Of a stretch of 40,632 nt of DNA, positions 7,493 to 40,632 are shown one piece after another (position 1 is the stretch's first letter; each line of letters opens with the position of its first letter). The position numbers were made by a program, and so were the translations under genes. Under the pieces are notes generated by a model. It made no database searches. It worked only from the letters and a program-made list of their open reading frames with translations, and was not told the DNA's origin. The stretch comes from Candidatus Zambryskibacteria bacterium RIFCSPHIGHO2_02_FULL_43_14 (GTDB lineage: Bacteria; Patescibacteriota; Minisyncoccia; Phycocordibacterales; Zambryskibacteraceae), in the NCBI GenBank assembly GCA_001825315.1, contig MHVR01000003.1:1-40632 (forward strand). Direction: 5' to 3'.

Positions 7493-7966
7493 ATGGAAAT
7501 CAATCAGTTCGTCGAGTTCGCGTCGGCGGTCGTTCGGTCGCTTCCGCGGAACTTGGATCCGGTCACAGCCCAGCGCTGGATCCGGGAACAGGGAACGCTT
7601 GCGGACGTGCTCCGCAAGGCACTAGCACCCGCGTTCGAGCTCTACCTCGCACCCGGTCAGCAGAACGGCGGCACAATGACGGGCTTCGACATCGATAAGC
7701 ATCTCGAGGAAACGAAGCTTATCGACCGCGCGTTCATCCTCGACGACGAACTCGTGAAGGGCTGGCTCGCGAACCACGCGACCTATCCGGAGGAGTTCAA
7801 GGGCAAGGCCATCTTCCTCTGGAAGTCCAAGCGGACCATCGGCTCCAACCGCAGGGTCGCGTATCTCTGCTGGCACGACAACCGCGTGATCGTGCGCTGG
7901 GCCTGGCTCGAGAGCAGGTGGAGCGGCCGCAGTCCGGCCCTCCTCATGAGTTCCTCGGTCCTTTGA
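7493..7966 (+). CDS. Hypothetical protein (GC-rich stand-alone cassette)
   Basis: 157-aa ORF, RBS-like gggagagg upstream, own promoter and terminator; C-terminal half recurs as a remnant at 8350-8475. Confidence 0.75.
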   Translation: MEINQFVEFASAVVRSLPRNLDPVTAQRWIREQGTLADVLRKALAPAFELYLAPGQQNGGTMTGFDIDKHLEETKLIDRAFILDDELVKGWLANHATYPEEFKGKAIFLWKSKRTIGSNRRVAYLCWHDNRVIVRWAWLESRWSGRSPALLMSSSVL

Positions 7967-23567: not shown

Positions 23568-24920
23568 ATGAATCCTACTGCGCAAAAGCTTCGCGGGACA
23601 AGAAATTGGCAAGGCGAGGGAGATGATTTTGAAATAGAGGGGGGACACAAACTCTCTGGTCAAATCACCACTAATGCTTCTAAAAATGGCGCCACGCATC
23701 TCTTTGCCGCCGCGTTGGTCAATCGGGGTAAAACTACTTTTCATAATATCCCGCGTATCGAGGAAGTGAGCCGATTTATAGAAGTTTTCAAAAGTCTTGG
23801 CATTAAAGTAGTTTGGATTGGTAAACACACTCTCACTATCGAGCCGCCGCGAACTTTCTCTGTCTTAAATATAAATAGTCGTGCTACTGGCAAAATTCGT
23901 TCCGCCCTCATGCTCATTGGTCCGCTCTCGGCCCGTATGCGTTCTTTCAGATTGCCCCATATCGGTGGTTGTAAAATGGGGGAGAGAACTATAGCCGCGC
24001 ATCGCTACGCACTCGAAGATTTGGGTCTAAAAATAGAGACAAAAGAAAACTATTATCAAATCTCTCATAATAAATGGATAAAAAAAGAGGTGGTTATGTA
24101 TGAAGCGTCAGATACAGGTACTACCAATGCTATTCTACGGGCGGCTATTTTACCGCAGCGAACCGTCATTGACTTCGCCCAACAGAATTACATGGTACTT
24201 GAAGTTTGTTACTTTTTGGAGAAACTTGGTATAGAAATTGAGGGTATCGGCACCAAGACACTAGTTATAAAAGGTAATCCAAATATAAATACGGAGATAG
24301 CGTACGCTAATAGTGAAGATCCGGTGGAAACCATGCTCTTTATCACAGCGGCCATCATGACGCATTCCAAGCTCCTTATTCGCAGGGTGCCTATTGATTT
24401 TCTGAAAGTGGAACTTTTAAAGCTTGAAAAGATGGGATTGCACTATAATATGTCTAGAAATTATCTATCCGATAATGGCCGCACTAAACTAGTAGATATT
24501 ACTATTAAACCATCTAAACTTAAGGCCCTTTATGACAAGATTCATGCTCAACCATATCCGGGTATCAATACCGACAATCTGCCGTTCTTCGTACCGATCG
24601 TCACTCAAGCTGTGGGTACGACTCTTATTCATGATTGGATGTGGGAGGATAGAGCCATTTTCTTTACTGAACTCAACCGGCTTGGTGCAAGTGTTCGTCT
24701 GGCTGACCCGCATCGTGTCTTTGTCGATGGACCGTCTAAGCTCAAGGGTGCACAGATAGTTTGTCCTCCAGCTCTCCGACCGGCAGTGATGCTCATGACT
24801 ACCATGCTTGGTGCGGAAGGAAAGTCAGTTTTGCGCAATGTTTACGCTATCAATCGCGGTTACGAAGATATCGTTGGACGACTAAATAGAATCGGCGCCA
24901 AAATCAAGATACTTAAGTAA
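23568..24920 (+). CDS. UDP-N-acetylglucosamine 1-carboxyvinyltransferase (MurA-like)
   Basis: EIEGGHKLSGQITTNASKNGATHLFAAALV, GKIRSALMLIGPLSARM, LPHIGGCKMGERTIAAH (active-site Cys context), YPGINTDNLPFFVPI. Confidence 0.88.
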   Translation: MNPTAQKLRGTRNWQGEGDDFEIEGGHKLSGQITTNASKNGATHLFAAALVNRGKTTFHNIPRIEEVSRFIEVFKSLGIKVVWIGKHTLTIEPPRTFSVLNINSRATGKIRSALMLIGPLSARMRSFRLPHIGGCKMGERTIAAHRYALEDLGLKIETKENYYQISHNKWIKKEVVMYEASDTGTTNAILRAAILPQRTVIDFAQQNYMVLEVCYFLEKLGIEIEGIGTKTLVIKGNPNINTEIAYANSEDPVETMLFITAAIMTHSKLLIRRVPIDFLKVELLKLEKMGLHYNMSRNYLSDNGRTKLVDITIKPSKLKALYDKIHAQPYPGINTDNLPFFVPIVTQAVGTTLIHDWMWEDRAIFFTELNRLGASVRLADPHRVFVDGPSKLKGAQIVCPPALRPAVMLMTTMLGAEGKSVLRNVYAINRGYEDIVGRLNRIGAKIKILK

Positions 24921-25047: not shown

Positions 25048-26340
25048 ATGAAACAGTCAATTGGAAATAAAAAAATAGTAGTAATAGGTCTCGGATATGT
25101 GGGTTTGCCACTCGCTCTTTTGTCATCTAAAAAGGGATTTCACACCACAGGCGTTGATCTTAATAAACAGAAAATTAAACTTATCCAAGAAAAGACATCC
25201 CCTTTTAATGATGAAGAGATTCAGAAGGAATTAACGACGACTTCACTTCAAGTTTCAAATGACTTTGCCGCGGTCGCCTCGGCGGATATAATCATTCTTT
25301 GCGTGCCTACTCCTGTTGATAATCATAAGATGCCTGACTATGGACCTGTTCAGAGTGCTTGTGAAAGCATAGGTCCCTATCTGAAAAAAGGCCAGTGCGT
25401 TATATTAGAGTCAACAGTAAACCCCGGAGTATGTGAAGAGATTGTGATCCCAACTATCGAATTGGTCTCCAAGCTTAGAGTGGGCGAAGATATCTCCGTT
25501 GCTCATTGTCCGGAGAGGATAAATCCTGGTGATAAAAAATGGAACGTATCAAACATTCCAAGAGTGATAGGTGGTTTTGACGAGAAAAGTCTTGACCTAG
25601 CGGTAGAGTTCTACCATTCAATCATAGATGCAGAGATAAAACCCATGGCTTCTCTTAAAGAAGCAGAAGCGGTAAAGATAGTTGAAAATTCTTTCAGAAA
25701 TATAAATATCGCCTTTGTAAATGAACTTGCCAAGTCATTTGCTCGCCTAAATATAGACGTCGTGAATGTGATTAATGGAGCGGCTACTAAGCCCTTTGCC
25801 TTCATGCCGCATTATCCGGGTTGCGGTATAGGCGGCCACTGTATACCTGTTGACCCTTATTATCTTATTGAATACGCGTTCAAGAATAACGGTTTCAAAC
25901 ATGATTTTCTGGCTTTAGCATGCAAAACCAATGAGAGTATGCATCGCTACACTGCCGATCTGGTGCGAGACGAACTTGCCAAAAAAGGGGTTTCAATCGA
26001 GAATGCTCGGGTGGCTGTGCTGGGTCTAGCGTACAAAAAGGATATTGATGATTGTCGCGAAAGTCCGTCATTTGGGATTATCAAATATCTTCAAGAAATG
26101 GGAGCAGAAGTGGTCTCATATGATCCTCACGTTCTATCGAAGTCGAGCGTAAGAACTTTAGAAGAAGCGCTGACAGGAACGGATGCGGTGGTGGTGGCTA
26201 CAGACCACGCAGAATTCAGTGGTCTTTCAGTTAATGACCTTGAGTCATTTGAGATAAAATCGGTAATCGACGGCAGAAATTGTTTGAAGAAGGAGGATTT
26301 TCTTGCCTCAAGTATTAGTTATAAGGGAGTAGGAAGATAA
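25048..26340 (+). CDS. Nucleotide-sugar (UDP-HexNAc-type) dehydrogenase
   Basis: Start likely ATG 25048. KIVVIGLGYVGLPLALL Rossmann, ESTVNPGVCEE, CPERINPGDK, GCGIGGHCIPVDPYYL active-site Cys, C-terminal AVLGLAYKKDIDDCRESP. Confidence 0.93.
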   Translation: MKQSIGNKKIVVIGLGYVGLPLALLSSKKGFHTTGVDLNKQKIKLIQEKTSPFNDEEIQKELTTTSLQVSNDFAAVASADIIILCVPTPVDNHKMPDYGPVQSACESIGPYLKKGQCVILESTVNPGVCEEIVIPTIELVSKLRVGEDISVAHCPERINPGDKKWNVSNIPRVIGGFDEKSLDLAVEFYHSIIDAEIKPMASLKEAEAVKIVENSFRNINIAFVNELAKSFARLNIDVVNVINGAATKPFAFMPHYPGCGIGGHCIPVDPYYLIEYAFKNNGFKHDFLALACKTNESMHRYTADLVRDELAKKGVSIENARVAVLGLAYKKDIDDCRESPSFGIIKYLQEMGAEVVSYDPHVLSKSSVRTLEEALTGTDAVVVATDHAEFSGLSVNDLESFEIKSVIDGRNCLKKEDFLASSISYKGVGR

Positions 26341-26351
26341 ATTCAATAATC

Positions 26352-27356
26352 ATGAATATCTTAATTGCAGGAGCGGCGGGATTTATTGGCTCAAACTTGA
26401 GTGATAAATTACTGAAAGATGGTCACAAAGTATGGGCAGTTGATAATTTCACGACCGGTAAATCTGAAAATCTCGAATCTTTTAAAGATAATAAGAATTT
26501 TATTTTTGCTGAATGTGGTGTAGAGACTGAAGATTTTCTAAAATTTTGTTCTGACCAACGAGTAAAATTTGACCAAATCTTTGATCTAGCTTGTCCGACA
26601 GGCGTGCCAAATATCGAAATTTTAGGAGATGAGATGCTGGAGGCTTGCTCTAATGGCACTAAGAATATATTGCGAGTTGCTCATGAGCATAATGCCAGAT
26701 TTCTCTTTACCAGTTCATCAGAAATTTATGGAGAACCGGAAGTACCTGTCCAATCCGAGAATTATACAGGCAATGTCGACCCTATCGGGTGGAGAGCTAA
26801 TTATGAGGAGGGAAAACGTTTCTCTGAAACATTAATTATGCACGCCGTACGCAAGCATAAACTAAATGCTAGAATTGTCAGATTATTTAATGTGTATGGG
26901 CCGAATATGGCATTAGGAGATTTTCGAGTTATACCGACATTTATTACACAAGCTTTGGTCAATAAACCTCTTACTGTGCATGGAGCGGGAACACAAATAC
27001 GCACTATGTGTTTTGTCGATGACTTGATTAACGGGCTTATCTTGGTTATGGAAAAAGGTATTGCCGGGGAAGCATATAATCTTGGTAGTGATAAAGCTAT
27101 AAGCATGCTCGATTTAGCTAAAGAAATAATACTGGCGACTGAATCAGAGAGTGATATCACTTTTATTCCGCGAGCTGAACATGATCACAATAGTCGTATG
27201 CCTGTCCTAGATAAAGTAAGAGCCTTGGGTTGGGATTATAAAGTGGACTTGCGAACGGGATTGGGAATTACTATCGATAATTTCCGCAAGCGTATAACTG
27301 CTTATGACGTTAAATACTCCATAGATGAAAGCTTGCAACTGCAACCACAGGGTTAG
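26352..27356 (+). CDS. NAD-dependent epimerase/dehydratase (UDP-glucuronate decarboxylase-like SDR)
   Basis: ILIAGAAGFIGSNL, SSSEIYGEPEVPVQSE, NYEEGKRFSETL (YxxxK), RLFNVYGPNM. Confidence 0.92.
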   Translation: MNILIAGAAGFIGSNLSDKLLKDGHKVWAVDNFTTGKSENLESFKDNKNFIFAECGVETEDFLKFCSDQRVKFDQIFDLACPTGVPNIEILGDEMLEACSNGTKNILRVAHEHNARFLFTSSSEIYGEPEVPVQSENYTGNVDPIGWRANYEEGKRFSETLIMHAVRKHKLNARIVRLFNVYGPNMALGDFRVIPTFITQALVNKPLTVHGAGTQIRTMCFVDDLINGLILVMEKGIAGEAYNLGSDKAISMLDLAKEIILATESESDITFIPRAEHDHNSRMPVLDKVRALGWDYKVDLRTGLGITIDNFRKRITAYDVKYSIDESLQLQPQG

Positions 27357-29033
27357 ATGTCTAAATTTTCCAGTATTTTAGAGAAGAATCTCCACTTTCT
27401 CATCGTAGCTTTTATTCTTGTTGTTCCCTTATTTTTTCTTAAGTACAAGACAGTTAATTTATCCAACCAAATCGTTATCTTGCCGTCGCTCGCTTCCTCA
27501 TGCGAAGTAATTTTCTCGAGGAATTTGCGTTACGGTAATACAGGGAATGATGTTGCAAAACTTCAGAAAATTCTAAATTTATCGGATGAATCTGGTCACT
27601 TCGACTTATTGACATATCATGCTGTCATAAAATTTCAGGAGAAATATGCCACCGATATTCTTCTACCGCTAGGTCTAACAGTAGGCACTGGTTTCGTCGG
27701 TCCCTATACTCGAGCCAAGATAGAAAAGGAGATGTGCCTCATATCCTTAGCCGGAGTTGTGGAAGATATCCCCACTAATTCTAATAAGTTATTCAACTTT
27801 TGGTATGTTCTAGTTGTTTTAATTCTAGTTTGGGGTGTTAATTTTATTTTCTGGGGATCAATAGGAGTCGCGCGCTTGCTTACAGAAAAAATAAACGCCT
27901 TAATATTTGGTAAAAATAGAAATGGTCTGAAAGAGCATCAAATCGAAGAAGAAGAGGTGGCAGTAATAGTGCCTGCTCATAATGAGGAACTGGTTATCGC
28001 TGATACTCTAAAGTCTCTCTTAAACATCACCAAGCCAACCAACATATTTGTCGTGTCGGACGGTTCGAGTGACAGTACTGCCCAGATTGCGCATCAGTAC
28101 GGAGTGTCTGTCTTAGAGTTAAATCCAAACAGAGGTAAGGCTGGCGCCATAGAGACAAGTATCCTTCGTTTTAAAATCTCTCAAAAATATAAAGCGGTTG
28201 TATTGATAGATGCTGATACTCGTCTTAAGAATGATTATCTAAAGAAAGCACTACCTTTTTTCGATGATCCAGAGGTGGTAGCTATTGCAGGGTTTGCCAG
28301 CACTATATGGCAAAGAGAGAAATTGTCTTGGAGACAAATGCTTTTTGTGTTGCACAGAGATCGCATCTACTTCTTGTTCCAGATGCTTATAAAATTCGGC
28401 CAGACTTGGAAATATGCAAATGTTACCCATATAGTTCCCGGATTTGCAAGTATCTATAGGACATCGATTTTAAATCAGATTGACATAAATCCTTCGGGAC
28501 TTGTGATAGAAGACTTCAATATGACCTTCGAGGTTCATCGTAAGAAACTTGGAAAAATCGCTCATCATCCGTCTGTGGTGGCATACACTCAAGATCCGGA
28601 TAATCTCAAGGATTATTATCGACAGATTAAGCGCTGGCACTTGGGATTCTGGCAAACTATACGGTTGCATGGCTTCTGGCCGTCTAAGTTCTGGTTATCT
28701 ATGGCTATAACTCTGATGGAAGTGGTGTTAGGGAATCTAACGTTCTTACTTATGCCGTTACTTATCTTGACTTATTTCGTACTAGATTCCAGTTTCTTCC
28801 TAACAGTTTTCTTCATAACTTGGGCTGTTGATTATCTTCTTACAATTATAGTCGCCCTATTCCAGAAGAGATGGGAATATCTGATTGTTGGCCTTACCTT
28901 TCCCCTCCTTCGCTTTGTAGATGCCGTAGCACTTCTGCTTGCCATACCCAGAGCATTTCTGGTTAGGTCGGATGGTCGCTGGATAAGTCCGTCACGAAGA
29001 GCAGAGGGCTCTCTAGGACAAATATCCACTTAA
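27357..29033 (+). CDS. Processive GT2 glycosyltransferase with N-terminal peptidoglycan-binding-like domain
   Basis: PG-binding-like LRYGNTGNDVAKLQKILNLSDESGHFDLLTYHAVIKFQEKYA; GT2 VAVIVPAHNEE, VLIDADTRL, VIEDFNMTFEV, QIKRWHLGFWQ, multiple TMs. Confidence 0.9.
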   Translation: MSKFSSILEKNLHFLIVAFILVVPLFFLKYKTVNLSNQIVILPSLASSCEVIFSRNLRYGNTGNDVAKLQKILNLSDESGHFDLLTYHAVIKFQEKYATDILLPLGLTVGTGFVGPYTRAKIEKEMCLISLAGVVEDIPTNSNKLFNFWYVLVVLILVWGVNFIFWGSIGVARLLTEKINALIFGKNRNGLKEHQIEEEEVAVIVPAHNEELVIADTLKSLLNITKPTNIFVVSDGSSDSTAQIAHQYGVSVLELNPNRGKAGAIETSILRFKISQKYKAVVLIDADTRLKNDYLKKALPFFDDPEVVAIAGFASTIWQREKLSWRQMLFVLHRDRIYFLFQMLIKFGQTWKYANVTHIVPGFASIYRTSILNQIDINPSGLVIEDFNMTFEVHRKKLGKIAHHPSVVAYTQDPDNLKDYYRQIKRWHLGFWQTIRLHGFWPSKFWLSMAITLMEVVLGNLTFLLMPLLILTYFVLDSSFFLTVFFITWAVDYLLTIIVALFQKRWEYLIVGLTFPLLRFVDAVALLLAIPRAFLVRSDGRWISPSRRAEGSLGQIST

Positions 29034-29101
29034 ATTACACAATCTTGAAAGACTTTCAATCAATATACGTTATCATTTATAATATAGCTAAAAGACAAAA
29101 A

Positions 29102-30280
29102 ATGAAAAAAACCATAAAATTGTTATCTGTTCTCGTAGTTACCGGGATCTTCCTGATGACAAGTAGTTCAGTCGCGGCTACTACCATAGGCGAACTTCTT
29201 TCTCAGCTTGCGGCTCTACAGGCACAAATTAATGCTTTACAAAATAGAGATCCCGTGTCTACAGCACCATATATTTTTAAACAAAATCTAACAGTCGGGT
29301 CTACTGGACCAGAGGTATCGTCTTTGCAACAAATGCTTGTGGCCCAGGGTCATTTGATTATGCCAGCAGGCGTAGCTTTCGGTTATTTTGGCTTTTTGAC
29401 TAAAACGGCCGTAGCTAAATGGCAGTCAGCAAATGGCGTATCACCGTCGGTCGGATACTGGGGGCCAATCTCTAGGACAAAGCAAGCAACTCTTAATAAA
29501 GTTAACGTTAGTATCGGTTCTGCACCTAACAGGAGTAGTGGTGGTGGGGGATCTTCAAGTAGAAGTTCTTCGTCTGGCAATGGGGGAAGTTCGGCATCGA
29601 ATCCACCCGCTGCCACTCCAACTCCTACTCCACTTTCTCCACCTTCAACTCCCACTTTTTCTCCGCAACCATCGCAATACCCTTTACATACAAATATTAC
29701 TGCGGCAGTCTTCTGGGTAGGAGAACCACAGGGTAATGGCTCATCTGAAGATAATGCTCTGTCTGCTTGGGATGATGACTGGCAGGTGCATTATGGCGGT
29801 TACGACGATTATCAAAATCGCAACGGTTATTATCCAACAGGATTTACCCCAAAAGAAAATCCGTTTTATTTGGACCTGCCGTATAACGACTTCAATGACA
29901 ACGGCAATCCGAAATCTAACCGCCTGACCGTAGTACCATGGGCCAATGAAAAAAACTGGAGTTCGGAAGAATCAATGATGAAGAATCGTTGGGTCAAGAT
30001 CACGAGAAACGATATTATTTGCTATGGACAGATTGAAGATGCTGGTCCTTATCAATACGATGATTATAATTACGTTTTCGGAACTAACGATGCTAGACCG
30101 AAGAGTACCATTTCTAATAATGCCGGTATGGATGTCTCTCCAGCACTTCGAGATTGTTTGCACTTCGTGGGATTAAATAATGTAGATAATAAAGTTGATT
30201 GGCAGTTTGTGAATTTCTCTGATGTGCCGAGCGGACCGTGGAAGGAAATAGTTACCACTTCTCAAATAAATTGGCCATAA
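29102..30280 (+). CDS. Secreted peptidoglycan-binding-like protein with C-terminal DPBB-like domain
   Basis: Start likely ATG 29102. Signal peptide; coil TTIGELLSQLAALQAQINALQN; PG-binding-like LTVGSTGPEVSSLQQMLVAQGH; Ser/Pro linker; CYGQIEDAGPY...NAGMDVSPALRDCLHFVG...VDWQFV. Confidence 0.8.
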   Translation: MKKTIKLLSVLVVTGIFLMTSSSVAATTIGELLSQLAALQAQINALQNRDPVSTAPYIFKQNLTVGSTGPEVSSLQQMLVAQGHLIMPAGVAFGYFGFLTKTAVAKWQSANGVSPSVGYWGPISRTKQATLNKVNVSIGSAPNRSSGGGGSSSRSSSSGNGGSSASNPPAATPTPTPLSPPSTPTFSPQPSQYPLHTNITAAVFWVGEPQGNGSSEDNALSAWDDDWQVHYGGYDDYQNRNGYYPTGFTPKENPFYLDLPYNDFNDNGNPKSNRLTVVPWANEKNWSSEESMMKNRWVKITRNDIICYGQIEDAGPYQYDDYNYVFGTNDARPKSTISNNAGMDVSPALRDCLHFVGLNNVDNKVDWQFVNFSDVPSGPWKEIVTTSQINWP

Positions 30281-30453
30281 TATAAAAGACATTAAATTGA
30301 TATAGACCCCTTGTATTATTTTGTCGTTTATAGTAATATCCAGACACACTTAAATATATAAGACATTATCTTAAATAATGGCTTGTATAAAGAGTTTAAA
30401 GGAATCAGTATTATTACTTGCCTGGTTTCGATTAAATATCAACGATTATTATT

Positions 30454-33400
30454 ATGAAGAGGTTCACATCACGCGGGGCAATCATTATTTTCGTTCTCGG
30501 TCTGGTTTTCAGTAATGCTAGTTCAATTTCAGCGGATACGACATCGACTCTTTTGCCTAATGGCCAGGGTAATTACACTTCTTGGAATGGAGACGAGAAC
30601 GATTTGGACGAGAGTGGTACGCCTAGTTGTGGTAGTAATGACTATATTGATAGTAACAATAGTAATAATCGCGAATCTGTAAATTTAGATCTTTCATCTA
30701 TCCCAAATGGAAACACAATAACTAGTGTAGAAGTTTTTACATGGGATGTTGCGCAGTTCTTTTTTAATGTAGGTGGCACGTATCAAACTTTTGTTAGAGT
30801 TGGCACGACCGATACAAACTCTGGTGTTAATCTTAATACTACAAGTTCAAACGGTTGCACTCAAAGGAGTCAGGTCATAAATATAGTTGACTTCGTCAAG
30901 AGTGGTACGACCGATCTTGAAGTGGGTGTGATGAAAGTTGGCAATACAACAGTTCGAGTTGGTGCGATAAGAGCTATCGTCACACACACTCCTCCCGACA
31001 CTATTGCTCCCGTTCTCGCTCAAGTGACAGCAGTTCCAACTATAACCAATGATGTTACTCCTAACTACACATTCAGTTCAACCGAAGCGGGAATTATTGC
31101 TTACAACGGTCTGTGTGGCACTGGTAGTTTATCTTCTGCCGTAGTAGGAAATAACACAACTACCTATGGATCACTTACAAATGGTGCCACCTATGGTAAT
31201 TGCACTATTACAGTCACGGATGCGGCGGGAAATGGGAGTATCCCGTTACCTGTAAGTGAATTCTCCATAAACACTGATGTCTTCAATAAAGGTATGGTTT
31301 CTCTCTCTTTCGACGACGGTACGCAATCCATCTATGACAATGCTCGTCCTATTCTCAATGCTGCTAGTGGTGGAATTGGTTACGACAGCACCCAATATAT
31401 TATCTCTGGTGCAATGGGATGTGCTGACATCAATAGTCCGGATTGCAGTTTTATGACTACTGCCGAGGTTAATATTTTAGAATCTGAAGGTCATGAGATT
31501 GCTGCCCATACCCGCACGGATCCTTGTGAGGTTGAACCATGCACGGGTCTTACTGGGCGTACTCCTATTGAACTTTTATTTGAAGTGGATGGTTTGCGTT
31601 TAGATCTCCTACAAGACATTGGTCTGCCGGTCAATACCTTTGCTTATCCTTTTGGCGTATTCGATGACGCGCTCATTCTCAAATTGAAGTCAGCTGGAAT
31701 TATCGGCGCTCGAACCGTGGATTTTATTGGCCCGTCAGCCGAGCATCTGTTTAACACGAAATCTACCAATCGCTACAAGCTGAATGCGGTGCAGGTAAAC
31801 ATCAATACTCCAATTACTCCTTTAGATCCACCAGAAGATCCAGATTTTGGAAACGTTGAAGAGTGGATTGATGAGGCGATTGCCGCAAACAAGTGGCTGA
31901 TTCTAGTCTTCCATGAAATCAAAGATGTTTGTGGAGATGAAATTTCCTGTACAACCCCAGCCAAACTTCAGACTATTACTGATTATCTAGACAGTAAAGG
32001 TGACAGCGTTGATGTCATTACCGTTAAAGAAGGTCTTTCACAGATGAATGATAATCCGGTATCGAATACCGGCGTACCGTCCATTGTTATTGCTGAAGAA
32101 GTGGCTGGAGTTGTTGGTGCAGAAGCAACTTCTCCTCTCGGCGCTCCAGTAACATTCACTCCAGCAGTAACTGACGACGACACAGGACTTCCTTCTACCT
32201 TGAACGCTTTTTGTACCATTCCAACCTTGGTTCTGAATACAAACTGGGGAGTTAGTTTCCCGACAGTTGTCATGTCTGGCGACACATTTGCGATGGGCAC
32301 TACGACAGTTACATGCACATCAGCAGATGCTGGCGGACGCCTTGGTACTAAAACCTTTGATGTAGTAGTAGCCAACAGCGCAGTTCCTTCTGTGACTATT
32401 ACAACCACATCTACCAATCCTACCAACATCTCACCAATTCCAGTTGCTGCTACTTTTTCTGAATCAGTAACCGGACTGACACAAGAAGATATTGCTGTTA
32501 CCAACGGTAGTGCGGAAAACTTTCTCGGCAGTGGTACCACATATACCTTTGACATAACACCTGTTACAGATGGGGAAGTAACGGTCAATATTCCAACAGG
32601 TTCTGCTCAAGATTCTGGCGGAGCGGACAACCTTGCTACAACTTCTATCTCTGTCATTTATGACGCTACAGCTCCGGAGCTCTCTATTACCGATGGTCCG
32701 GTCGAAGCTTCTACTATTACAACGACCGAGACATCATTCTCCTTTGTTGCTACAGGCGCAGATATTGTTGAATGCAAGCTCGATGGCGAAGGATACGCTC
32801 CATGTGATTCTCCGAAAGTATTGACTACTCTCGTCGAAGGCCTTCACACCTTTATGGTCAGAGCTTCTGATATTGCTCTCAATTCTACAGAAGTTTCTCG
32901 AACCTTCACGGTTGATACTCTGCCTCCGGTTTTGGTAGAAGTAACGCCGGTTCCAAGTCCTGCAAGCATTACTCCGAGTTATACTTTCAGTTCAACTGAA
33001 GCAGGGGTAATAACTTATGGCGGTTCCTGTTCCAGCGCTACTCTAGACGCGGTTGTTGGAGACAATACCGTAACCTTCAATGCTCTGGTTGGTGGAACTT
33101 ATAGCGACTGTACTATTACTGTTACAGATGCTTCCGCTCATATAAGTGAATCTCTAGCAATCAATGAGTTTACAGTTGACGACAGCGCACCGGTAATCAC
33201 GATAAATAGCCAGCCAAATCTATTCATTAACACCACTGATGCGGAGATTAACTTTACAGTCACAGATGCGTTAACAGTTGTCTGCACTTTCGATACTGTC
33301 AACAATGCTTGTGAAAGTGATGTTCCGGTTTCTCTATCTGGCCTTAGCGAAGCCGCTCACGAATTCGTCATCGTCGCTACCGACGAAGTAGGGAACAGCG

Positions 33401-34923
33401 CCACCAGCACCGCGAACTTCACCGTTGATTTGACTGCACCGGTACTTGCCGTCAACTCACTGGCAACCAATGACACTACTCCGACTGTTACCGGCACTAC
33501 GGATGATTCTGCTGACGTTACAATAACTGTAAACGCAGTAGAATACCTCACTACTCCAATTCTCGGAGCATGGTCTGTAACTATTCCTGCAGAAAACGAA
33601 CTTATTGACGGCGTATATCCTGTATCAGCAGTAAGCACAGATGCCGCTGGTAATCTATCTAATCTTGCGGAAGGCACTCTAACCATTAACACCCAAGCTC
33701 CTGACTTGACTCTCGATCCAATTGCCTCGAATGTTACCGCCATTACGGGTACCACTGAACCGACAGGTGTGACTGTTACTGTCACAGTTACTGATTCGGA
33801 ACTTAATGGCTTCACTTATGATGCTTCCGTTGACGGAGCCGGCATCTGGTCAGCTACCATCACTGATGTACTTGCTGAAGGCGTTTACACTGTCACTGTC
33901 ACTGCCACCGATGAACTCGGAAATGTGGCCACTCTCCCTTCCACCCTTACTATAGATACCACTAGTCCGGTTCTCACTTTGGTCGGCACCGATCCTGTTG
34001 ATGTGAATCTTAACGGCATTTACACAGAAGAAGGTGCAACAGGTACAGATAATATTGACTCAACTGTTACAGTGGTGATTGGCGGTGACACGGTAGACAC
34101 GGGAGTTCTCGGAGCCGAATACACTATCACTTATAGCGCAGTGGATACTTCTGGTAACTCATCCGGAATTACAAGGACCGTTCGTATTAAAGATCTTGAA
34201 GCTCCGGTACTCACACTCACTGGCGCGTCTCCTATGAATCTTGCAATTGGTCAGGAGTATGTTGAATCGGGTGCAATAGGTGTCGATAACGTAGATGCTT
34301 CGGTCGAAGTGACTATCGGTGGAGATACGGTAAATACGGCAATTGTCGGTACCTACTCTGTCACCTACGATGCGACAGATACAGCCGGTAATGTAGCTAC
34401 TCAAATTATCCGCACGGTAGTAGTTTCTGATCTCGTAGTCTCAACTGAAGAGACTAATACACCCGCAACAGATAGTATTACAATCACTTGGACTACCAGT
34501 CATCCATCGACCAGTCGAGTAGTTTACGACACCGTTTCTCATAATCCTATAACGGATCCTGCTCCCAACTACGGTTACGCCAACTCTACGGTTGAAGATG
34601 CTACTCTTGTCACTGAGCATTCTGTAGTAGTGAGCGGCCTTTCCGCAGGCACAACTTACTTCTTGCGACCGATATCACACGGTTCTCCGGAGGTGGTAGG
34701 AAACGAAGTTTCCGTAATTACTCAAAATGTACCTATTGCGGAAGTAACGAGACATAGGACACAAGGACAATTCTCGCGTCCAATAAATCTAACAGGTCAA
34801 GTTTTGGGAGCGTTTACTACTAGTGGCAATCAGGATCAAATAGAAGCTATAAAAGCGCAATTAATAATTCTTATGCAGGAGCTCATCAAGCTTCTACAAA
34901 TCGAGATAAACGCTAAAAGTTAG
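30454..34923 (+). CDS. Very large secreted polysaccharide deacetylase (NodB)-adhesin with HYR, Ig-like, DUF5011-like and Fn3-like domains
   Basis: Signal peptide; MVSLSFDDGTQSIYDN...HEIAAHTRTDP...NTFAYPFG...LVFHEI; HYR-like repeat; Ig-like repeats (TIAPVL, TPPVL, SAPVI, TAPVL); DUF5011-like VLTLTGASPMNLAIGQEYVESGAIGVDN; C-terminal coil. Confidence 0.88.
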   Translation: MKRFTSRGAIIIFVLGLVFSNASSISADTTSTLLPNGQGNYTSWNGDENDLDESGTPSCGSNDYIDSNNSNNRESVNLDLSSIPNGNTITSVEVFTWDVAQFFFNVGGTYQTFVRVGTTDTNSGVNLNTTSSNGCTQRSQVINIVDFVKSGTTDLEVGVMKVGNTTVRVGAIRAIVTHTPPDTIAPVLAQVTAVPTITNDVTPNYTFSSTEAGIIAYNGLCGTGSLSSAVVGNNTTTYGSLTNGATYGNCTITVTDAAGNGSIPLPVSEFSINTDVFNKGMVSLSFDDGTQSIYDNARPILNAASGGIGYDSTQYIISGAMGCADINSPDCSFMTTAEVNILESEGHEIAAHTRTDPCEVEPCTGLTGRTPIELLFEVDGLRLDLLQDIGLPVNTFAYPFGVFDDALILKLKSAGIIGARTVDFIGPSAEHLFNTKSTNRYKLNAVQVNINTPITPLDPPEDPDFGNVEEWIDEAIAANKWLILVFHEIKDVCGDEISCTTPAKLQTITDYLDSKGDSVDVITVKEGLSQMNDNPVSNTGVPSIVIAEEVAGVVGAEATSPLGAPVTFTPAVTDDDTGLPSTLNAFCTIPTLVLNTNWGVSFPTVVMSGDTFAMGTTTVTCTSADAGGRLGTKTFDVVVANSAVPSVTITTTSTNPTNISPIPVAATFSESVTGLTQEDIAVTNGSAENFLGSGTTYTFDITPVTDGEVTVNIPTGSAQDSGGADNLATTSISVIYDATAPELSITDGPVEASTITTTETSFSFVATGADIVECKLDGEGYAPCDSPKVLTTLVEGLHTFMVRASDIALNSTEVSRTFTVDTLPPVLVEVTPVPSPASITPSYTFSSTEAGVITYGGSCSSATLDAVVGDNTVTFNALVGGTYSDCTITVTDASAHISESLAINEFTVDDSAPVITINSQPNLFINTTDAEINFTVTDALTVVCTFDTVNNACESDVPVSLSGLSEAAHEFVIVATDEVGNSATSTANFTVDLTAPVLAVNSLATNDTTPTVTGTTDDSADVTITVNAVEYLTTPILGAWSVTIPAENELIDGVYPVSAVSTDAAGNLSNLAEGTLTINTQAPDLTLDPIASNVTAITGTTEPTGVTVTVTVTDSELNGFTYDASVDGAGIWSATITDVLAEGVYTVTVTATDELGNVATLPSTLTIDTTSPVLTLVGTDPVDVNLNGIYTEEGATGTDNIDSTVTVVIGGDTVDTGVLGAEYTITYSAVDTSGNSSGITRTVRIKDLEAPVLTLTGASPMNLAIGQEYVESGAIGVDNVDASVEVTIGGDTVNTAIVGTYSVTYDATDTAGNVATQIIRTVVVSDLVVSTEETNTPATDSITITWTTSHPSTSRVVYDTVSHNPITDPAPNYGYANSTVEDATLVTEHSVVVSGLSAGTTYFLRPISHGSPEVVGNEVSVITQNVPIAEVTRHRTQGQFSRPINLTGQVLGAFTTSGNQDQIEAIKAQLIILMQELIKLLQIEINAKS

Positions 34924-34953
34924 AGAAGAAAGATTATAATAAGAGATTAGACA

Positions 34954-34993
34954 ACACCAAAAAACCGCCTTTAAAAAGGCGGTTTTTTGGTGT
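34954..34993. terminator. Bidirectional-looking Rho-independent terminator
   Basis: Perfect 19-bp inverted repeat ACACCAAAAAACCGCCTTT-AA-AAAGGCGGTTTTTTGGTGT. Confidence 0.9.
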
Positions 34994-35005
34994 ATTCTTA
35001 AACAG

Positions 35006-35923
35006 ATGTTCAGGTGGTTTAAGAAACATTTCATACCGCACGAAGGCAATAATCATAGGCCGCACTTTCTCCATGGTCCCAATGCTCGCAAAATTGTTTT
35101 AGCGGTACTAGCTCTTGAGCTTATTCTCTTTGTTCTCCCATCTATTACGTTTTTTCGCGGGCCGGATTTTCTTGCTTCAGTTTTGCCTTCGGTGCTCAAT
35201 AATCTTACCAACGATAAGCGCGCCAGTGCTCATCTCAACCAGCTTACAACCAACTTGCTACTTGAGCAGGCTGCCGCCAGAAAAGCTTCCGATATGGCCT
35301 CTAAAGGCTACTTTGCCCACAACAGTCCCGAAGGAGTTACTCCGTGGTACTGGCTTAGAGTTTCCGGATATCTTTATGATACGGCCGGTGAAAATCTGGC
35401 TGTTAACTTTACCGACTCGAAAGATGTAACCGAGGCCTGGATGAATTCTCCCGCTCATCGTGACAATATTCTTAGACAGGGATTTACCGAAATAGGTACC
35501 GCCGCCGCTACCGGTTATTATGACGGGCGTGAGGCCATCTTTGTTGTTCAGTATTATGCTCGTCCTTCAAACATAATTTCCGTTACAAATTTGGTTTCAA
35601 CTGTTATCGCTTCTTCGACTGCTCCGGCTACTGTCGCAGTAGCTTCTTCCACTGCTGTTTTGGGCGAAGTGATAAACTCCCTTTCTACATCGCCGAAGCG
35701 CAATACCGATTTTGCGCTTCTTGGTATCTTGGGCGTAGTGGTGCTTGCTTTGGTAATTAATCTAATTACGAAAACCCGAGAGAAACATCCCGACCTTATT
35801 ACCAACGGCCTCGCTGTGATAGTGATCATCATCACTATATATTTGTCCAATAATTATTTGTTCAGTACTTATCCTACTGTACCGCTAGGGCAAGCTCTGA
35901 TTTCGGAAATTACTTTTAACTAA
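35006..35923 (+). CDS. CAP-superfamily (SCP/YkwD-like) membrane protein
   Basis: LNQLTTNLLLEQAAARKASDMASKGYFAHNSPEGVTPWYWL...AGENLAVNF...TEAWMNSPAHRDNILRQGFTEIGTA, flanked by TM segments. Confidence 0.92.
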   Translation: MFRWFKKHFIPHEGNNHRPHFLHGPNARKIVLAVLALELILFVLPSITFFRGPDFLASVLPSVLNNLTNDKRASAHLNQLTTNLLLEQAAARKASDMASKGYFAHNSPEGVTPWYWLRVSGYLYDTAGENLAVNFTDSKDVTEAWMNSPAHRDNILRQGFTEIGTAAATGYYDGREAIFVVQYYARPSNIISVTNLVSTVIASSTAPATVAVASSTAVLGEVINSLSTSPKRNTDFALLGILGVVVLALVINLITKTREKHPDLITNGLAVIVIIITIYLSNNYLFSTYPTVPLGQALISEITFN

Positions 35924-35933
35924 ATAATCAAAT

Positions 35934-37517
35934 ATGAATAAAACATGGAAAAGTCTTACATCTCTCGTTACCATTTTTATTGCGATAGGCAGTTTCTCAA
36001 TTCCAAGTGTCAGCGCCGAAGAAGTAAATCTCATTCAGAATTCTTCATTTGAGATTCAAGCTAGCGACGGAAGTCCTGCCAATTGGTCGAAGAATTATTG
36101 GGGTTCTCCGGTGCCGACTTTCAAATATCTCAATACCGGCAGGACTGGCGCGGGGAAAAGTGCTTCAGTTACTCTCAACAGGAAATCGACTGGAGGCGCA
36201 GATTGGGGTCACACCTCAGTCCTTGTCGAAGAGGGTGCTTCTTATAGGTATAGCAATTGGTATAAATCAAATGTCGCGACAGAAATAGATGCGGAGTTTA
36301 CTGATAGCAAGGGGAAACTTTCATATGCTTTGGTAGCCACACTGCCGTCTTCCGGTAATACTTGGAAACAAGCGTCTTCAACTTTAACCATTCCAGCCGA
36401 TGTCACCAAGGTGACGGTCTTCCATTTTATTAGTAAGAAGGGAACACTGACTGTTGATGATTTTTCTCTGGTTAAAGTGGAAACCACACCGACACCTCCA
36501 CCACCTACGGACCCGAATTTGTTTAATAAGGGTTTAGTCACTCTCTCATTCGATGACGGTTTGAAATCGGTCTTTGATAACATTAACCTTCTCGGTAGTC
36601 TCAAGAGCACTCAATATATCTATACCGAACCGATGTTTGGTGCTACGGAATGCGCAGGCGCCTGTTACGAAGACTTCATGAATATTTCTAACGTTAAAAG
36701 TCTCTACAATGCCGGTCATGAAGTCGCGTCGCATACTCGCTCTCATCCTAACCTGACCGCCGTTTCGGCCGTCACGAAACTCTTCGAAACAGACGGTTCC
36801 CGTCTCGATCTCTTGAGAGAAATAGGCATTCCAGTTTCTAATCTCGCATATCCCTATGGCGAATCTAACACCGATGTTGTAGCCAAATTACAGTCAGCCG
36901 GTTTTGTCGGAGCTCGCACGGTTGTTCCGGATGATCTCAATACTAGAAACACGAACCGCTACGCTCTCTTCGCGCGGCAGGTAAACGGCAATACCAGTTT
37001 TGCAGAAGTGAAGAGTTGGATTGACGAAGCAATTTTAAGTAAAAAGTGGCTCATTCTTGTATTCCACGAAATTAGAAATTCTTGTGGTAGTGAAGTTTAT
37101 TGCGCCACACCCACAACTCTTAGCGGTATCGTCAGTTATCTCACAACTCAAAACAGTAATGTCAATGTGGTCACAGTAGCTCAAGGTCTTGCTCAAATGA
37201 ACAATAATCCTGTTTCTAATCCCGGTGTACCAGTCATCGCACAAGAAGATATTACTGTCACTACCACTTCTCAAACCGGCGCTCCGGTAACATTTTCACC
37301 CGCGGTTTCAGACGATGACACAGGTCTGTCTCTTACTCTCAACGCTTTTTGTACCATAGCAAATACCGTTCCTGACCCTTATTCAGGATTAATTTTTCCA
37401 ACAGTTGTCACTTCCGGATACACTTTTTCGATAGGGACAACGATCGTAACGTGTACAGCAACGGATACGGGTGGACGTATCGGCACTAAAACTTTTACCG
37501 TAAAAGTGACAAATTGA
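35934..37517 (+). CDS. Secreted polysaccharide deacetylase (NodB) with N-terminal carbohydrate-binding-like domain and C-terminal HYR-like module
   Basis: NLIQNSSFEIQASDGSPANWSKNYWG N-terminal module; LVTLSFDDGLKSVFDN, HEVASHTRSHPNL, NLAYPYGES, LILVFHEI. Confidence 0.9.
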   Translation: MNKTWKSLTSLVTIFIAIGSFSIPSVSAEEVNLIQNSSFEIQASDGSPANWSKNYWGSPVPTFKYLNTGRTGAGKSASVTLNRKSTGGADWGHTSVLVEEGASYRYSNWYKSNVATEIDAEFTDSKGKLSYALVATLPSSGNTWKQASSTLTIPADVTKVTVFHFISKKGTLTVDDFSLVKVETTPTPPPPTDPNLFNKGLVTLSFDDGLKSVFDNINLLGSLKSTQYIYTEPMFGATECAGACYEDFMNISNVKSLYNAGHEVASHTRSHPNLTAVSAVTKLFETDGSRLDLLREIGIPVSNLAYPYGESNTDVVAKLQSAGFVGARTVVPDDLNTRNTNRYALFARQVNGNTSFAEVKSWIDEAILSKKWLILVFHEIRNSCGSEVYCATPTTLSGIVSYLTTQNSNVNVVTVAQGLAQMNNNPVSNPGVPVIAQEDITVTTTSQTGAPVTFSPAVSDDDTGLSLTLNAFCTIANTVPDPYSGLIFPTVVTSGYTFSIGTTIVTCTATDTGGRIGTKTFTVKVTN

Positions 37518-37587
37518 TTACTTAATTTGTTTATCCAATAATTTTTTATTAAAAGACAAAATTTTTCTATCCACATTTTGTACACAG

Positions 37588-37616
37588 AGAAATGCACACA
37601 ATGCATTTTCTTTTTA
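37588..37616 (+). terminator. Putative terminator after the second deacetylase
   Basis: GAAATGCA-caca-aTGCATTTTC hairpin followed by TTTTTATT. Confidence 0.4.
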
Positions 37617-37709
37617 TTCAATTAAGAAATAAACTTCTGTCTAATGGACACTATACGTGTCGCATGACAAAAATAAAATTAGTACTTTAAAAAATAATTT
37701 AAATTAATT

Positions 37710-38633
37710 ATGAAAAGAATTCTTTTAAGTTTGGGAATGATAGTCTTCGTCGGAGGACTAGTTGCCGGAGCCACTGGCGCCTTCTTCTCTGATGAGGAAA
37801 CCTCAACGGGGAATACGTTTGCGGCTGGAGATATTGATCTCCAGATTGATAACGAGAGTTATGTAGTTGATTACAATATTCCGCAGTATCTAAACCCAAC
37901 AGGTCAGTTTATCTTCAGTACATCGACTTCTTGGGCGCTCGCAGATCTTGTAGCAGGTGTGCAAAAATTCTTTAACTTCTCTGACCTCAAACCAGGTGAC
38001 ATGGGAGAAGATACCATCTCAATTCATGTAGGCAGCAATAATGCATGGATGTGCGCTGCTGCACATATTACTGCAGATGAAGATGTAGATTGTACTGAAC
38101 CAGAGCTAACTAATGATCCGAGCTGTAACATTAATCCACTACTTGATGACGGTGAACTTGACGAAGGACTCCAATTCGCATTCTGGGCGGACGACGGCGA
38201 TAATGTATATGAGCCAGGCACTCCTACACAAGGCGGGATTGCAGAAGTCATCTTTCTTTCTGGCACTCTCGCAAATATGGGCGCGGCAGGGCAAATTACT
38301 CTTGCAGATTCGGTAAGTAGCATACTTGGTGGTAATACTCCAATCCCAGGAGACACCACTTTCTACATTGGTAAGGCGTGGTGTTTTGGAACACTGGTAA
38401 CTTCAGGTTTAACGCAGGATGGTATAGGCAAAACAGGCGATCCGCTTAACAACATTCCTTCAACGAACGGTCCAATTCAGCGACCGGGGGGTGTGGCGTG
38501 TGGCGGTTCTGGTGTAAACAATGCGGCACAGACTGATCGGGTTCAGGGCGATATGCAGTTCTATGCAGTTCAAGCGCGGAACAATCCGAACTTCCTTTGC
38601 TCAATAAACTACATACCACAGTGGTCTAACTAG
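37710..38633 (+). CDS. TasA/CalY-like protein with SipW-dependent-type signal peptide, paralog 1
   Basis: MKRILLSLGMIVFVGGLVAGATGAFFSDEETSTGNTFAAGDIDLQIDNES; NFSDLKPGDMGEDTISIHV; FWADDGDNVYEPG. Confidence 0.9.
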   Translation: MKRILLSLGMIVFVGGLVAGATGAFFSDEETSTGNTFAAGDIDLQIDNESYVVDYNIPQYLNPTGQFIFSTSTSWALADLVAGVQKFFNFSDLKPGDMGEDTISIHVGSNNAWMCAAAHITADEDVDCTEPELTNDPSCNINPLLDDGELDEGLQFAFWADDGDNVYEPGTPTQGGIAEVIFLSGTLANMGAAGQITLADSVSSILGGNTPIPGDTTFYIGKAWCFGTLVTSGLTQDGIGKTGDPLNNIPSTNGPIQRPGGVACGGSGVNNAAQTDRVQGDMQFYAVQARNNPNFLCSINYIPQWSN

Positions 38634-38651
38634 TAATTCTCTCTAGCCGTT

Positions 38652-38678
38652 CAGGAGCTCTGCAAAACAGGGCTCTTG
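38652..38678. promoter_or_regulatory. Intergenic hairpin between TasA-like paralogs 1 and 2
   Basis: CAGGAGCTCTG-CAAAA-CAGGGCTCTTG, 11-bp stem including wobble pairs, no U-run. Confidence 0.4.
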
Positions 38679-38721
38679 CGGGCTGGATGGGAATTCAGCT
38701 TTACAAATTTAATATTTACTC

Positions 38722-39894
38722 ATGCGACGCATAATAATCGGACTCATCACTATCGTTGGAGCGGGAGCCATGGTCATTTCCGGGGCGACGGGCGCGTTCT
38801 TCTCTGATACAGAGACGTCAACGGGCAACACCTTCACTGCGGGAGCGATTGACCTCAAGATAGACAACGACAGCTGGTACAACGGCAATCGTTGCACGAA
38901 CGTTGGTACACAGGAGAATCCTGTGTGGCAATGGCAAGGAACAGCCGGGTTCCCTGTATCAGGAACTTCTTGCACGACTTCGTTTAAGCCATCCAACCTT
39001 GACGGTCTCCTCTTCTTCAACTTTCGCGATTTGAAACCGGATGACGAGGGCGAGGACACAATATCTATCGATGTCCAAAACGATGCATGGACGTGTATGG
39101 ACCTGACACTAACTTCGGATGACGACAAGTCTTCGACTGAACCGGAACTCGATGCTCCCGATGTTCTAGAGAACTCCGGAGATGCATGGGACGGCGAACT
39201 TGCTGATGCAATCAACTTCTTCTGGTGGGCAGATGACGGAGACAACGTGTATGAAGTAGGTGAGAACCAGATAACAAATGGCGTGATAAGTCTTGCTAAT
39301 CTTGATGACACATTCCCGATTGCCATTGCTGACTCCGAAAACAATGTCTGGGGTGATGTTGGCAATCCTGTGCCAGGAGGCGAGACGGTTTACATTGCCA
39401 AAGCATGGTGCATGGGGACATTGACGCTTGATGCAGTACCAGTAGGAGATAATCCATCTGTAGATCCAGGTGTTAACTGTGACGGTACAGCACTTGGTAA
39501 TGTAACCCAGACCGACATGGCCGAGCTAAACATTATCTTCAGCGCAGTACAAGCGCGACACAACCCTAACTTCGAATGCAATCCCGATGTAAGACCTCTA
39601 CCAATTCTCACGGTTAACAAAATTCTGACAGCCGATACTGTGGGAATCAGCGTTGAGGACTTCACGCTCCACATTTCCGGACCAAGTATTGAAATGGACG
39701 TGACTGACAATATTCCAGTACCCGATCTTCCTGTTGGGACCTACACTGTATCCGAAACTATTACCGGTGATGTGGGTGGAAAAACATTCACCACGACATT
39801 TGGCGGCGCGTGTGACTCCAGTACTCATCAAGTTACTCTCGGACTTGGAGACAATCTTGTTTGCACCATCGTCAATGTAGAGAACGGAATCTAG
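38722..39894 (+). CDS. TasA/CalY-like protein, paralog 2, with extra C-terminal prealbumin/SpaA-like domain
   Basis: GATGAFFSDTETSTGNTFTAGAIDLKIDNDSWY; FRDLKPDDEGEDTISIDV; FWWADDGDNVYEVGE; C-terminal LTVNKILTADTVGISVEDFTLHISG...VGTYTVSETITG...CTIVNVEN. Confidence 0.9.
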   Translation: MRRIIIGLITIVGAGAMVISGATGAFFSDTETSTGNTFTAGAIDLKIDNDSWYNGNRCTNVGTQENPVWQWQGTAGFPVSGTSCTTSFKPSNLDGLLFFNFRDLKPDDEGEDTISIDVQNDAWTCMDLTLTSDDDKSSTEPELDAPDVLENSGDAWDGELADAINFFWWADDGDNVYEVGENQITNGVISLANLDDTFPIAIADSENNVWGDVGNPVPGGETVYIAKAWCMGTLTLDAVPVGDNPSVDPGVNCDGTALGNVTQTDMAELNIIFSAVQARHNPNFECNPDVRPLPILTVNKILTADTVGISVEDFTLHISGPSIEMDVTDNIPVPDLPVGTYTVSETITGDVGGKTFTTTFGGACDSSTHQVTLGLGDNLVCTIVNVENGI

Positions 39895-39914
39895 TCTTTA
39901 GAAAATAATCTTGC

Positions 39915-40632
39915 ATGTCCACGACAATCATAAAAATTGTTGGGAGGGGAGTCCTGTTAGCGGGATTCTTTGCGCTGGTGGTAAGCGCGTTATATGCAAG
40001 AGAAGCCGAACCCGGTATAACCTTCGCTACTTACGGCATTGACCTCAAGATAGATAGTGAGGCGAGTTATAACGGTTTGCCAGTGCCTTCTGGCACATGG
40101 GATCTCAAGAATTTGGTGCCGGGCTCCGACCACTTCTTTAACTTCGACGACATTAAGCCCGGTGACTATGGCGAAAACACTATCAGCATGCATGTAAAAA
40201 AATCTGATGCATGGCTCTGTCTTGATTTTAAAAATCTCGATGAAAATGAAAATGGTGTTAACGAACCGGAGTCGCACGAAGATGTGGATGGTGTAGCAGA
40301 TGGAGAACTGGCGGAGGTGATGGAATTCTTCTCATGGCTTGATGATGGAGACAACATTTTCGAGCTCGGGGAAAAGCCGCTTTTCGGCACCGCAACCCAG
40401 TCGGCTGTGGAAGTGTTGAACGAAAAAACTTACACCATCGGCGATGCCGGTCAAGGTGGCTCGTGCAAAATAAATCAGAGTAGATATATAGGCATTTACT
40501 GGTGCGCGGGGGACCTTGAAGTCAACCTTGATACCGCAGAAATCACTTGCGATGGCTCGGGGCTTGGCAACGAAACCCAGACCGACTCTATGACCGTCGA
40601 TGTCTCCATTCGCGCCCTGCCAGCCAAAGAAA
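39915..40632 (+). CDS. TasA/CalY-like protein, paralog 3 (open at window end), signal region diverged
   Basis: Not in the ORF track because it has no stop in the window. MSTTIIKIVGRGVLLAGFFALVVSALYAREAEPGITFATYGIDLKIDSEASYNG...FDDIKPGDYGENTISMHV...FFSWLDDGDNIFELGE. Confidence 0.85.
   Translation, partial: MSTTIIKIVGRGVLLAGFFALVVSALYAREAEPGITFATYGIDLKIDSEASYNGLPVPSGTWDLKNLVPGSDHFFNFDDIKPGDYGENTISMHVKKSDAWLCLDFKNLDENENGVNEPESHEDVDGVADGELAEVMEFFSWLDDGDNIFELGEKPLFGTATQSAVEVLNEKTYTIGDAGQGGSCKINQSRYIGIYWCAGDLEVNLDTAEITCDGSGLGNETQTDSMTVDVSIRALPAKE

What the first reader, a model, noticed from the sequence alone, without database searches (positions are those of the whole stretch)
25048..40632. Candidate integrated extracellular-matrix locus: EPS synthase + precursor enzymes + two deacetylases + three TasA-like fibre proteins
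Seen directly: nucleotide-sugar dehydrogenase, SDR epimerase, processive GT2, PG-binding/DPBB-like protein, NodB-adhesin, CAP protein, second NodB protein and three TasA/CalY-like proteins, all on the + strand. Established: in Bacillus, EPS genes plus SipW-processed TasA build the biofilm matrix, and deacetylases such as PgaB modify poly-GlcNAc-type EPS. Inference: this is a minimal matrix or host-attachment system of a CPR-type bacterium. I know of no description of this exact combination, but could not search.
Basis: partly seen in the sequence, partly recalled or inferred. Interest (0 to 1): 0.82.

Follow-up and report, generated by a model that had tools for sequence, protein, structure and literature searches.

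The report
TasA-fibre operon beside polysaccharide-synthase cassette
A tiny uncultivated Patescibacterium carries a Bacillus-like matrix-fibre operon (three TasA-type proteins and their dedicated signal peptidase) next to genes for making and trimming a surface sugar polymer; the fibre operon is conserved across the group, but the sugar genes sit beside it in only a small minority of relatives.

Summary
The genes described are real. The window is a whole contig that stops inside TasA-like gene 3. TasA(x1-4)-SipW-SipC is a conserved operon in Patescibacteria: 36 of 384 genomes of the class, 54 named loci. SipC is a further TasA-like protein; here and in 11 other loci SipW is fused to it, with at least two origins. 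A CAP protein is linked to the operon more often than chance. The polysaccharide part is a separate, real cassette: QxxRW GT2, a DPBB-like protein and NodB deacetylases, often with NodB and GT2 fused. The DPBB-like gene lies beside NodB-GT2 in 5 of 5 genomes. The cassette is close to TasA-SipW in the window and six other lineages, but in only 2 of 34 unbiased SipW neighbourhoods. The matrix interpretation is plausible; an obligate integrated EPS-plus-TasA locus is not supported. TasA/SipW in Patescibacteria, and the SipW-substrate fusion, appear undescribed in the open papers searched.

The parts
25048..26340 (+). Nucleotide-sugar 6-dehydrogenase, closest to UDP-HexNAc dehydrogenases (ORF also open from TTG 24970)
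   Evidence: TIGR03026 410 bits; best PDB 4r16 E 5.6e-73, Cap5O
26352..27356 (+). UXS-like SDR enzyme (UDP-glucuronate decarboxylase type), 11 bp after the dehydrogenase
   Evidence: PDB 4gll/2b69 E 1e-67; homologue adjoins the orthologous GT2 in G340/L126
27357..29033 (+). Processive-type GT2 synthase with N-terminal PG-binding-like segment between two hydrophobic stretches; motifs D, DAD, ED, QIKRW
   Evidence: PF00535/PF13641/PF13632; motif alignment; N-terminal segment matches PG-binding-like regions of many other proteins in relatives; PDB hyaluronan synthase E 1.5e-10
29045..30280 (+). PG_binding_1 + C-terminal DPBB-like domain; the C-terminal domain is a conserved neighbour of NodB-GT2 genes
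   Evidence: PF01471; in 5 of 5 genomes beside NodB-GT2, E 1e-28 to 1e-51
30454..34923 (+). 1489-aa secreted adhesin-like protein: NodB domain with one metal ligand missing (HTRTD) + Big/HYR-type repeats
   Evidence: PF01522, PF19077, PF16403; alignment
35006..35923 (+). CAP (YkwD-like) membrane-anchored secreted protein
   Evidence: PF00188, TIGR02909; linked to SipW in relatives
35934..37517 (+). Secreted CBM-like + NodB deacetylase + HYR-type domain; motifs SFDDG, HTRSH, YPYG intact
   Evidence: PF01522 E 2.4e-12; alignment
37710..38633 (+). TasA-like 1, SipW-type signal (ATGAFFSD)
   Evidence: TIGR04088, PF12389; AlphaFold model's best PDB match is TasA fibre 8aur, prob 0.99, E 1.1e-3
38722..39894 (+). 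TasA-like 2, SipW-type signal, C-terminal SpaA-like domain
   Evidence: TIGR04088, PF12389; PF19403 below cut-off
39915..40632 (+). TasA-like 3, no SipW motif, cut by contig end; remainder and SipW-SipC fusion on contig C5 (L052:8178-7813 and 7804-5729, minus strand)
   Evidence: alignment with intact G015 homologue; about 50 residues missing between the contigs
23568..24920 (+). MurA/EPSP-synthase-like gene, left boundary of the variable surface-gene slot, not part of the system
   Evidence: PF00275; homologue precedes the slot in G015 and G018

Best explanation
This is a cell-surface matrix locus made of two functional units. Unit 1 is a conserved patescibacterial fibre operon: TasA-like subunits are exported by Sec, trimmed by a SipW-type signal peptidase and, by analogy with Bacillus TasA, polymerise outside the cell by donor-strand exchange. 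SipC, the extra TasA-like domain behind or fused to SipW, would be the membrane-proximal starter or anchor, a TapA-like role. Unit 2 is a facultative polymer cassette: the dehydrogenase and UXS-like enzyme make an activated sugar, the QxxRW GT2 polymerises and exports a glycan, and the NodB proteins de-N-acetylate it, while PG-binding and CAP proteins hold or remodel it at the cell surface. Shown: gene content, motifs, conserved order, SipW-SipC fusion, linkage statistics. Inferred: export, cleavage, fibre formation, glycan identity, and that the two units build one matrix.
For: SipW family match 103 bits against a 51.85 cut-off, with Ser, His and Asp candidates for the active site invariant in five relatives. 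TasA-like genes present in 28 of 34 unbiased SipW neighbourhoods and in most of 54 named loci. TasA fibre as top PDB fold match. SipC domain matches fimbrial, donor-strand type pilins, weakly. NodB and GT2 are fused in one protein in L082, L160, L161, L162, L165, L166 and L168, with a PG-binding domain detected in L082 and L160. The DPBB-like gene is beside NodB-GT2 in 5 of 5 genomes and directly behind GT2 here. NodB lies within about 17 kb of SipW in 2 of 3 genomes that have both, p about 0.007. CAP linked in 7 of 21, p about 1e-6. All genes co-directional; gaps of 0-11 bp from the dehydrogenase to the DPBB-like gene.
Against: Only 2 of 34 unbiased SipW neighbourhoods hold GT2(QxxRW)+NodB. 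Processive GT2 alone was 8 near versus 0 in 0.28 Mb of control, which is not significant. GT2, dehydrogenase and UXS genes are absent from the same place in same-genus relatives. No TasA match in the PDB by sequence. The TasA1 model is mediocre (pLDDT 69) and the SipW fusion model poor (pLDDT 53). No expression data.
Confidence: 0.58

Rival explanations
1. Two unrelated surface systems share a hypervariable surface-gene slot between a MurA-like gene and FtsEX. The TasA-SipW operon and CAP are residents; the polymer and adhesin genes are passing cargo with no joint function.
For: Same-genus relatives carry different cargo (Gly/Asn-rich repeat proteins and DUF11 proteins) in the same slot; GT2 orthologues are rare and elsewhere in other genomes; low rate of co-location.
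Against: GT2+NodB beside TasA-SipW in six other lineages; NodB distance test p about 0.007; CAP linkage. No difference in GC from the rest of the contig.
Confidence: 0.32
2. The NodB, CAP, PG-binding and DPBB-like proteins act on peptidoglycan, the cell's own or that of a host bacterium, rather than on an exopolysaccharide; the GT2 makes a wall-attached glycan.
For: PG-binding domains in GT2, DPBB-like, NodB-adhesin and NodB-GT2 proteins; nearest NodB structures include a peptidoglycan deacetylase; neighbours MurA-like and FtsEX.
Against: CBM and adhesin-type repeats point to extracellular glycan; NodB-GT2 fusions tie deacetylation to the synthase product.
Confidence: 0.2
3. The TasA-like proteins are not fibres but camelysin-type surface proteases or S-layer-like coat proteins processed by SipW.
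For: The library match is to Peptidase_M73 (camelysin), and only over the first 50 or so residues.
Against: Best fold match is the TasA fibre subunit; several tandem paralogues with SipW, as in fibre operons.
Confidence: 0.12

Closest known systems
Bacillus subtilis tapA-sipW-tasA / B. cereus sipW-tasA-calY operons (PMC9674648, PMC4292775)
   Same: SipW-type signal peptidase beside TasA-like precursors with SipW-type signals; TasA-fibre fold match; several paralogues as in B. cereus
   Different: No TapA orthologue identified; SipC domain behind or fused to SipW; TasA-like 3 lacks the SipW motif; lineage is Patescibacteria; some subunits carry extra C-terminal domains
Archaeal bundling pili (AbpA), described as TasA-related in PMC9674648
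   Same: TasA-like fibre subunits outside Firmicutes
   Different: Archaeal; not compared here at sequence level
Poly-GlcNAc synthase systems pga/ica (PgaC/IcaA + PgaB/IcaB)
   Same: Processive GT2 with QxxRW and NodB deacetylase
   Different: GT2 is 73 bits against a PgaC cut-off of 422 and NodB is far below the IcaB cut-off; PG-binding-like fusion; DPBB-like partner
NodB-GT2 fusion synthases
   Same: Same two activities; fused versions occur in relatives that carry the same DPBB-like partner
   Different: In the window they are separate genes, the GT2 keeping only a PG-binding-like N-terminal segment

Membership tests
SipW-TasA fibre system | SipW/ER-type signal peptidase encoded with the fibre genes | tested here: met
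   TIGR02228 103.4 bits; on C5 directly behind the TasA3 tail
SipW-TasA fibre system | SipW-cognate signal in the fibre precursors | tested here: met
   TIGR04088 over cut-off in TasA-like 1 and 2; absent in TasA-like 3
SipW-TasA fibre system | TasA fold | tested here: inconclusive
   8aur is the top Foldseek match, prob 0.99, E 1.1e-3, TM 0.32-0.40, model pLDDT 69; no PDB sequence match
SipW-TasA fibre system | TapA-type accessory protein | tested here: inconclusive
   No TapA orthologue identified; SipC domain pilin-like by weak fold match
SipW-TasA fibre system | Filaments outside the cell | not testable with these tools
   needs experiment
pga/ica poly-GlcNAc system | PgaC/IcaA synthase | tested here: not met
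   TIGR03937 72.9 bits, cut-off 422.3
pga/ica poly-GlcNAc system | PgaB/IcaB deacetylase | tested here: not met
   TIGR03933 21.8 bits, cut-off 248
Processive GT2 synthases (general) | D, DxD, (E)D, QxxRW motifs | tested here: met
   alignment with nine relatives
NodB/CE4 deacetylase | FDD and HxxxH metal-binding motifs | tested here: met
   Met in 35934-37517; not met in 30454-34923, which has HTRTD

The most novel reading that the evidence does not exclude
Patescibacteria possess an undescribed branch of TasA-type matrix fibres in which the dedicated signal peptidase is translationally coupled or fused to a TasA-like starter subunit (a peptidase carrying its own substrate), and some lineages couple this to a NodB-GT2 glycan cassette as a minimal two-component extracellular matrix.
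Probability: 0.45. Interest if true: 0.75.

Novelty: new variant of a known kind. Interest (0 to 1): 0.58.

Why it matters
How ultra-small, mostly epibiotic bacteria attach to hosts or live in biofilms is an open question. A conserved SipW-TasA-SipC operon in about 9% of sampled genomes of the class gives a specific, testable candidate filament. The SipW-SipC fusion would physically join a signal peptidase to a fibre subunit, suggesting how fibre start and cell anchoring could be coordinated.

Tried and rejected
Orthologous synteny of the whole block in the genus: rejected. Recent gain shown by base composition: no signal. PgaC/IcaA assignment: rejected by cut-off. Overlap joining C3 and C5 by shared bases: none found; the join rests on protein synteny. 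Co-occurrence of strong CBM-NodB homologues with SipW genome-wide: not significant (p 0.11). AlphaFold of the SipW-SipC fusion gave a poor model. Papers on TasA or SipW in Patescibacteria or Parcubacteria: none relevant among open-access texts. Promoter/terminator scan: uninformative. A PDB sequence search with the TasA profile: no hit.

Full report
OBSERVATION. The window is contig C3 (40,632 bases) of a 0.62-Mb, 23-contig genome, 94% complete; its nearest named relatives are Candidatus Zambryskibacteria. The ten ORFs of the finding are present, co-directional and match the stated families with the corrections given under the observation check.

THE MISSING SIPW. The contig stops inside TasA-like 3. 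The own genome has one strong SipW (103 bits), at the very end of contig C5, preceded by the tail of a protein that matches the C-terminus of the intact TasA-like 3 of G015; about 50 residues are missing between the two contigs. Four relatives (G015, G018, G028, G002) show three TasA-like genes and SipW unbroken. FtsE and FtsX follow SipW in the own genome and lie nearby in G018, G028 and G002. The join is inferred from synteny, with no sequence overlap.

THE FIBRE OPERON. A scan of 84,980 species genomes found 54 related loci; all those with informative names are Patescibacteria (the query patterns limit reach, so absence elsewhere is not shown). In most, 1-4 TasA-like genes are followed by SipW (about 170-230 aa) and by a further gene, SipC, with a TasA-type signal motif, a TasA-like domain, sometimes a lamin-tail domain, and an acidic Pro/Glu-rich tail. 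In several loci the SipW stop and SipC start overlap by 4 bases (L067, L071, L082). In the window's genus and some others they are one protein; on a SipW tree the fused form needs 5 changes by parsimony, and well-supported branches force at least 2. In a sample of 384 genomes of the class 36 have the system. TasA-like 1 modelled by AlphaFold finds the B. subtilis TasA fibre first in the PDB. The SipC domain resembles donor-strand fimbrial subunits, but the model is poor overall and TM-scores are low.

THE POLYMER CASSETTE. The window GT2 carries D, DAD, ED and QIKRW and an N-terminal PG-binding-like segment. It has no orthologue among 30 family genomes and four in the class; in one of these (G340) it adjoins the same UXS-like gene. 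The C-terminal domain of the DPBB-like protein occurs in 5 of 50 SipW-bearing genomes and always lies beside a NodB-GT2 fusion gene. In L082 and L160 the fusion also has a PG-binding domain. These fusions are the best evidence that GT2, NodB and the DPBB-like protein work together. One of the two NodB domains of the window (30454-34923) lacks a metal ligand and may be inactive.

ARE THE TWO COUPLED? In favour: GT2 and NodB lie near TasA-SipW in L067, L071/L160 (Taylorbacteria), L082, L163/L174 (Portnoybacteria), L164 and L107/L173; all these GT2s have a QxxRW motif (in L067, QVSRW). Of three class-sample genomes, other than the own, with both CBM-NodB and SipW, two have them within about 17 kb (p about 0.007 by random placement, with a distance chosen after the fact). 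CAP is within 12 kb in 7 of 21 genomes with both (p about 1e-6), although several are from the same family, so about four independent lineages. Against: in 34 unbiased neighbourhoods (0.93 Mb) only two hold GT2(QxxRW)+NodB, and same-genus relatives carry other surface proteins in that slot. The control of 0.28 Mb contained no hits to any of these families and is too small for a test of GT2 alone. I conclude that coupling is facultative.

MECHANISM. Established elsewhere: SipW trims TasA and TapA, TasA polymerises by donor-strand exchange and TapA is thought to start and anchor fibres (PMC9674648). Inferred here: the same route with SipC as starter or anchor. The dehydrogenase is nearest to UDP-HexNAc dehydrogenases and its neighbour to UDP-glucuronate decarboxylase; such a pair could make UDP-xylose or UDP-XylNAc (biosynthesis of the latter sugar is reported in B. 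cereus, cited in PMC4514872). The substrate assignment is a guess.

NOVELTY. Each part is known. The patescibacterial TasA-SipW-SipC operon and the SipW-SipC fusion are not mentioned in the open papers searched; subscription literature was not available.

Noticed in passing
window 6685-7347: IS200-like (Y1) transposase gene, low GC (0.335), directly downstream of the serS-like gene 5356-6618.
   Followed up: partly
window 7493-7966: 157-aa ORF with GC 0.62 and GC3 0.84 in a 44% GC contig, no Pfam match; compositional outlier.
   Followed up: no
L056:6283-9846, L057:3764-8799, L058:2-6908: In same-genus relatives the slot before TasA holds Gly/Asn-rich repeat proteins and an 820-940 aa DUF11 protein instead of the polymer genes.
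   Followed up: partly
L126:7743-11405 and L127:7024-10931: Orthologues of the window GT2 sit beside a PIG-L-like deacetylase and a WbqC-like gene (recognised by eye, not by a family search), without TasA genes.
   Followed up: partly
L107 (8001-16414) and G115:C19 (L191/L192): Genomes with two SipW genes in one neighbourhood, the second with its own small SipC in L107.
   Followed up: no
window 9823-12219: AAA+ protein with N-terminal hydrophobic segments and a ClpB-type second domain (AAA_2 + ClpB_D2-small).
   Followed up: no
L056:12333-13472 and L082:1-606: TasA-like 3 of some lineages has a conserved C-terminal C(S)xGYWKQSQHF domain of unknown role.
   Followed up: no
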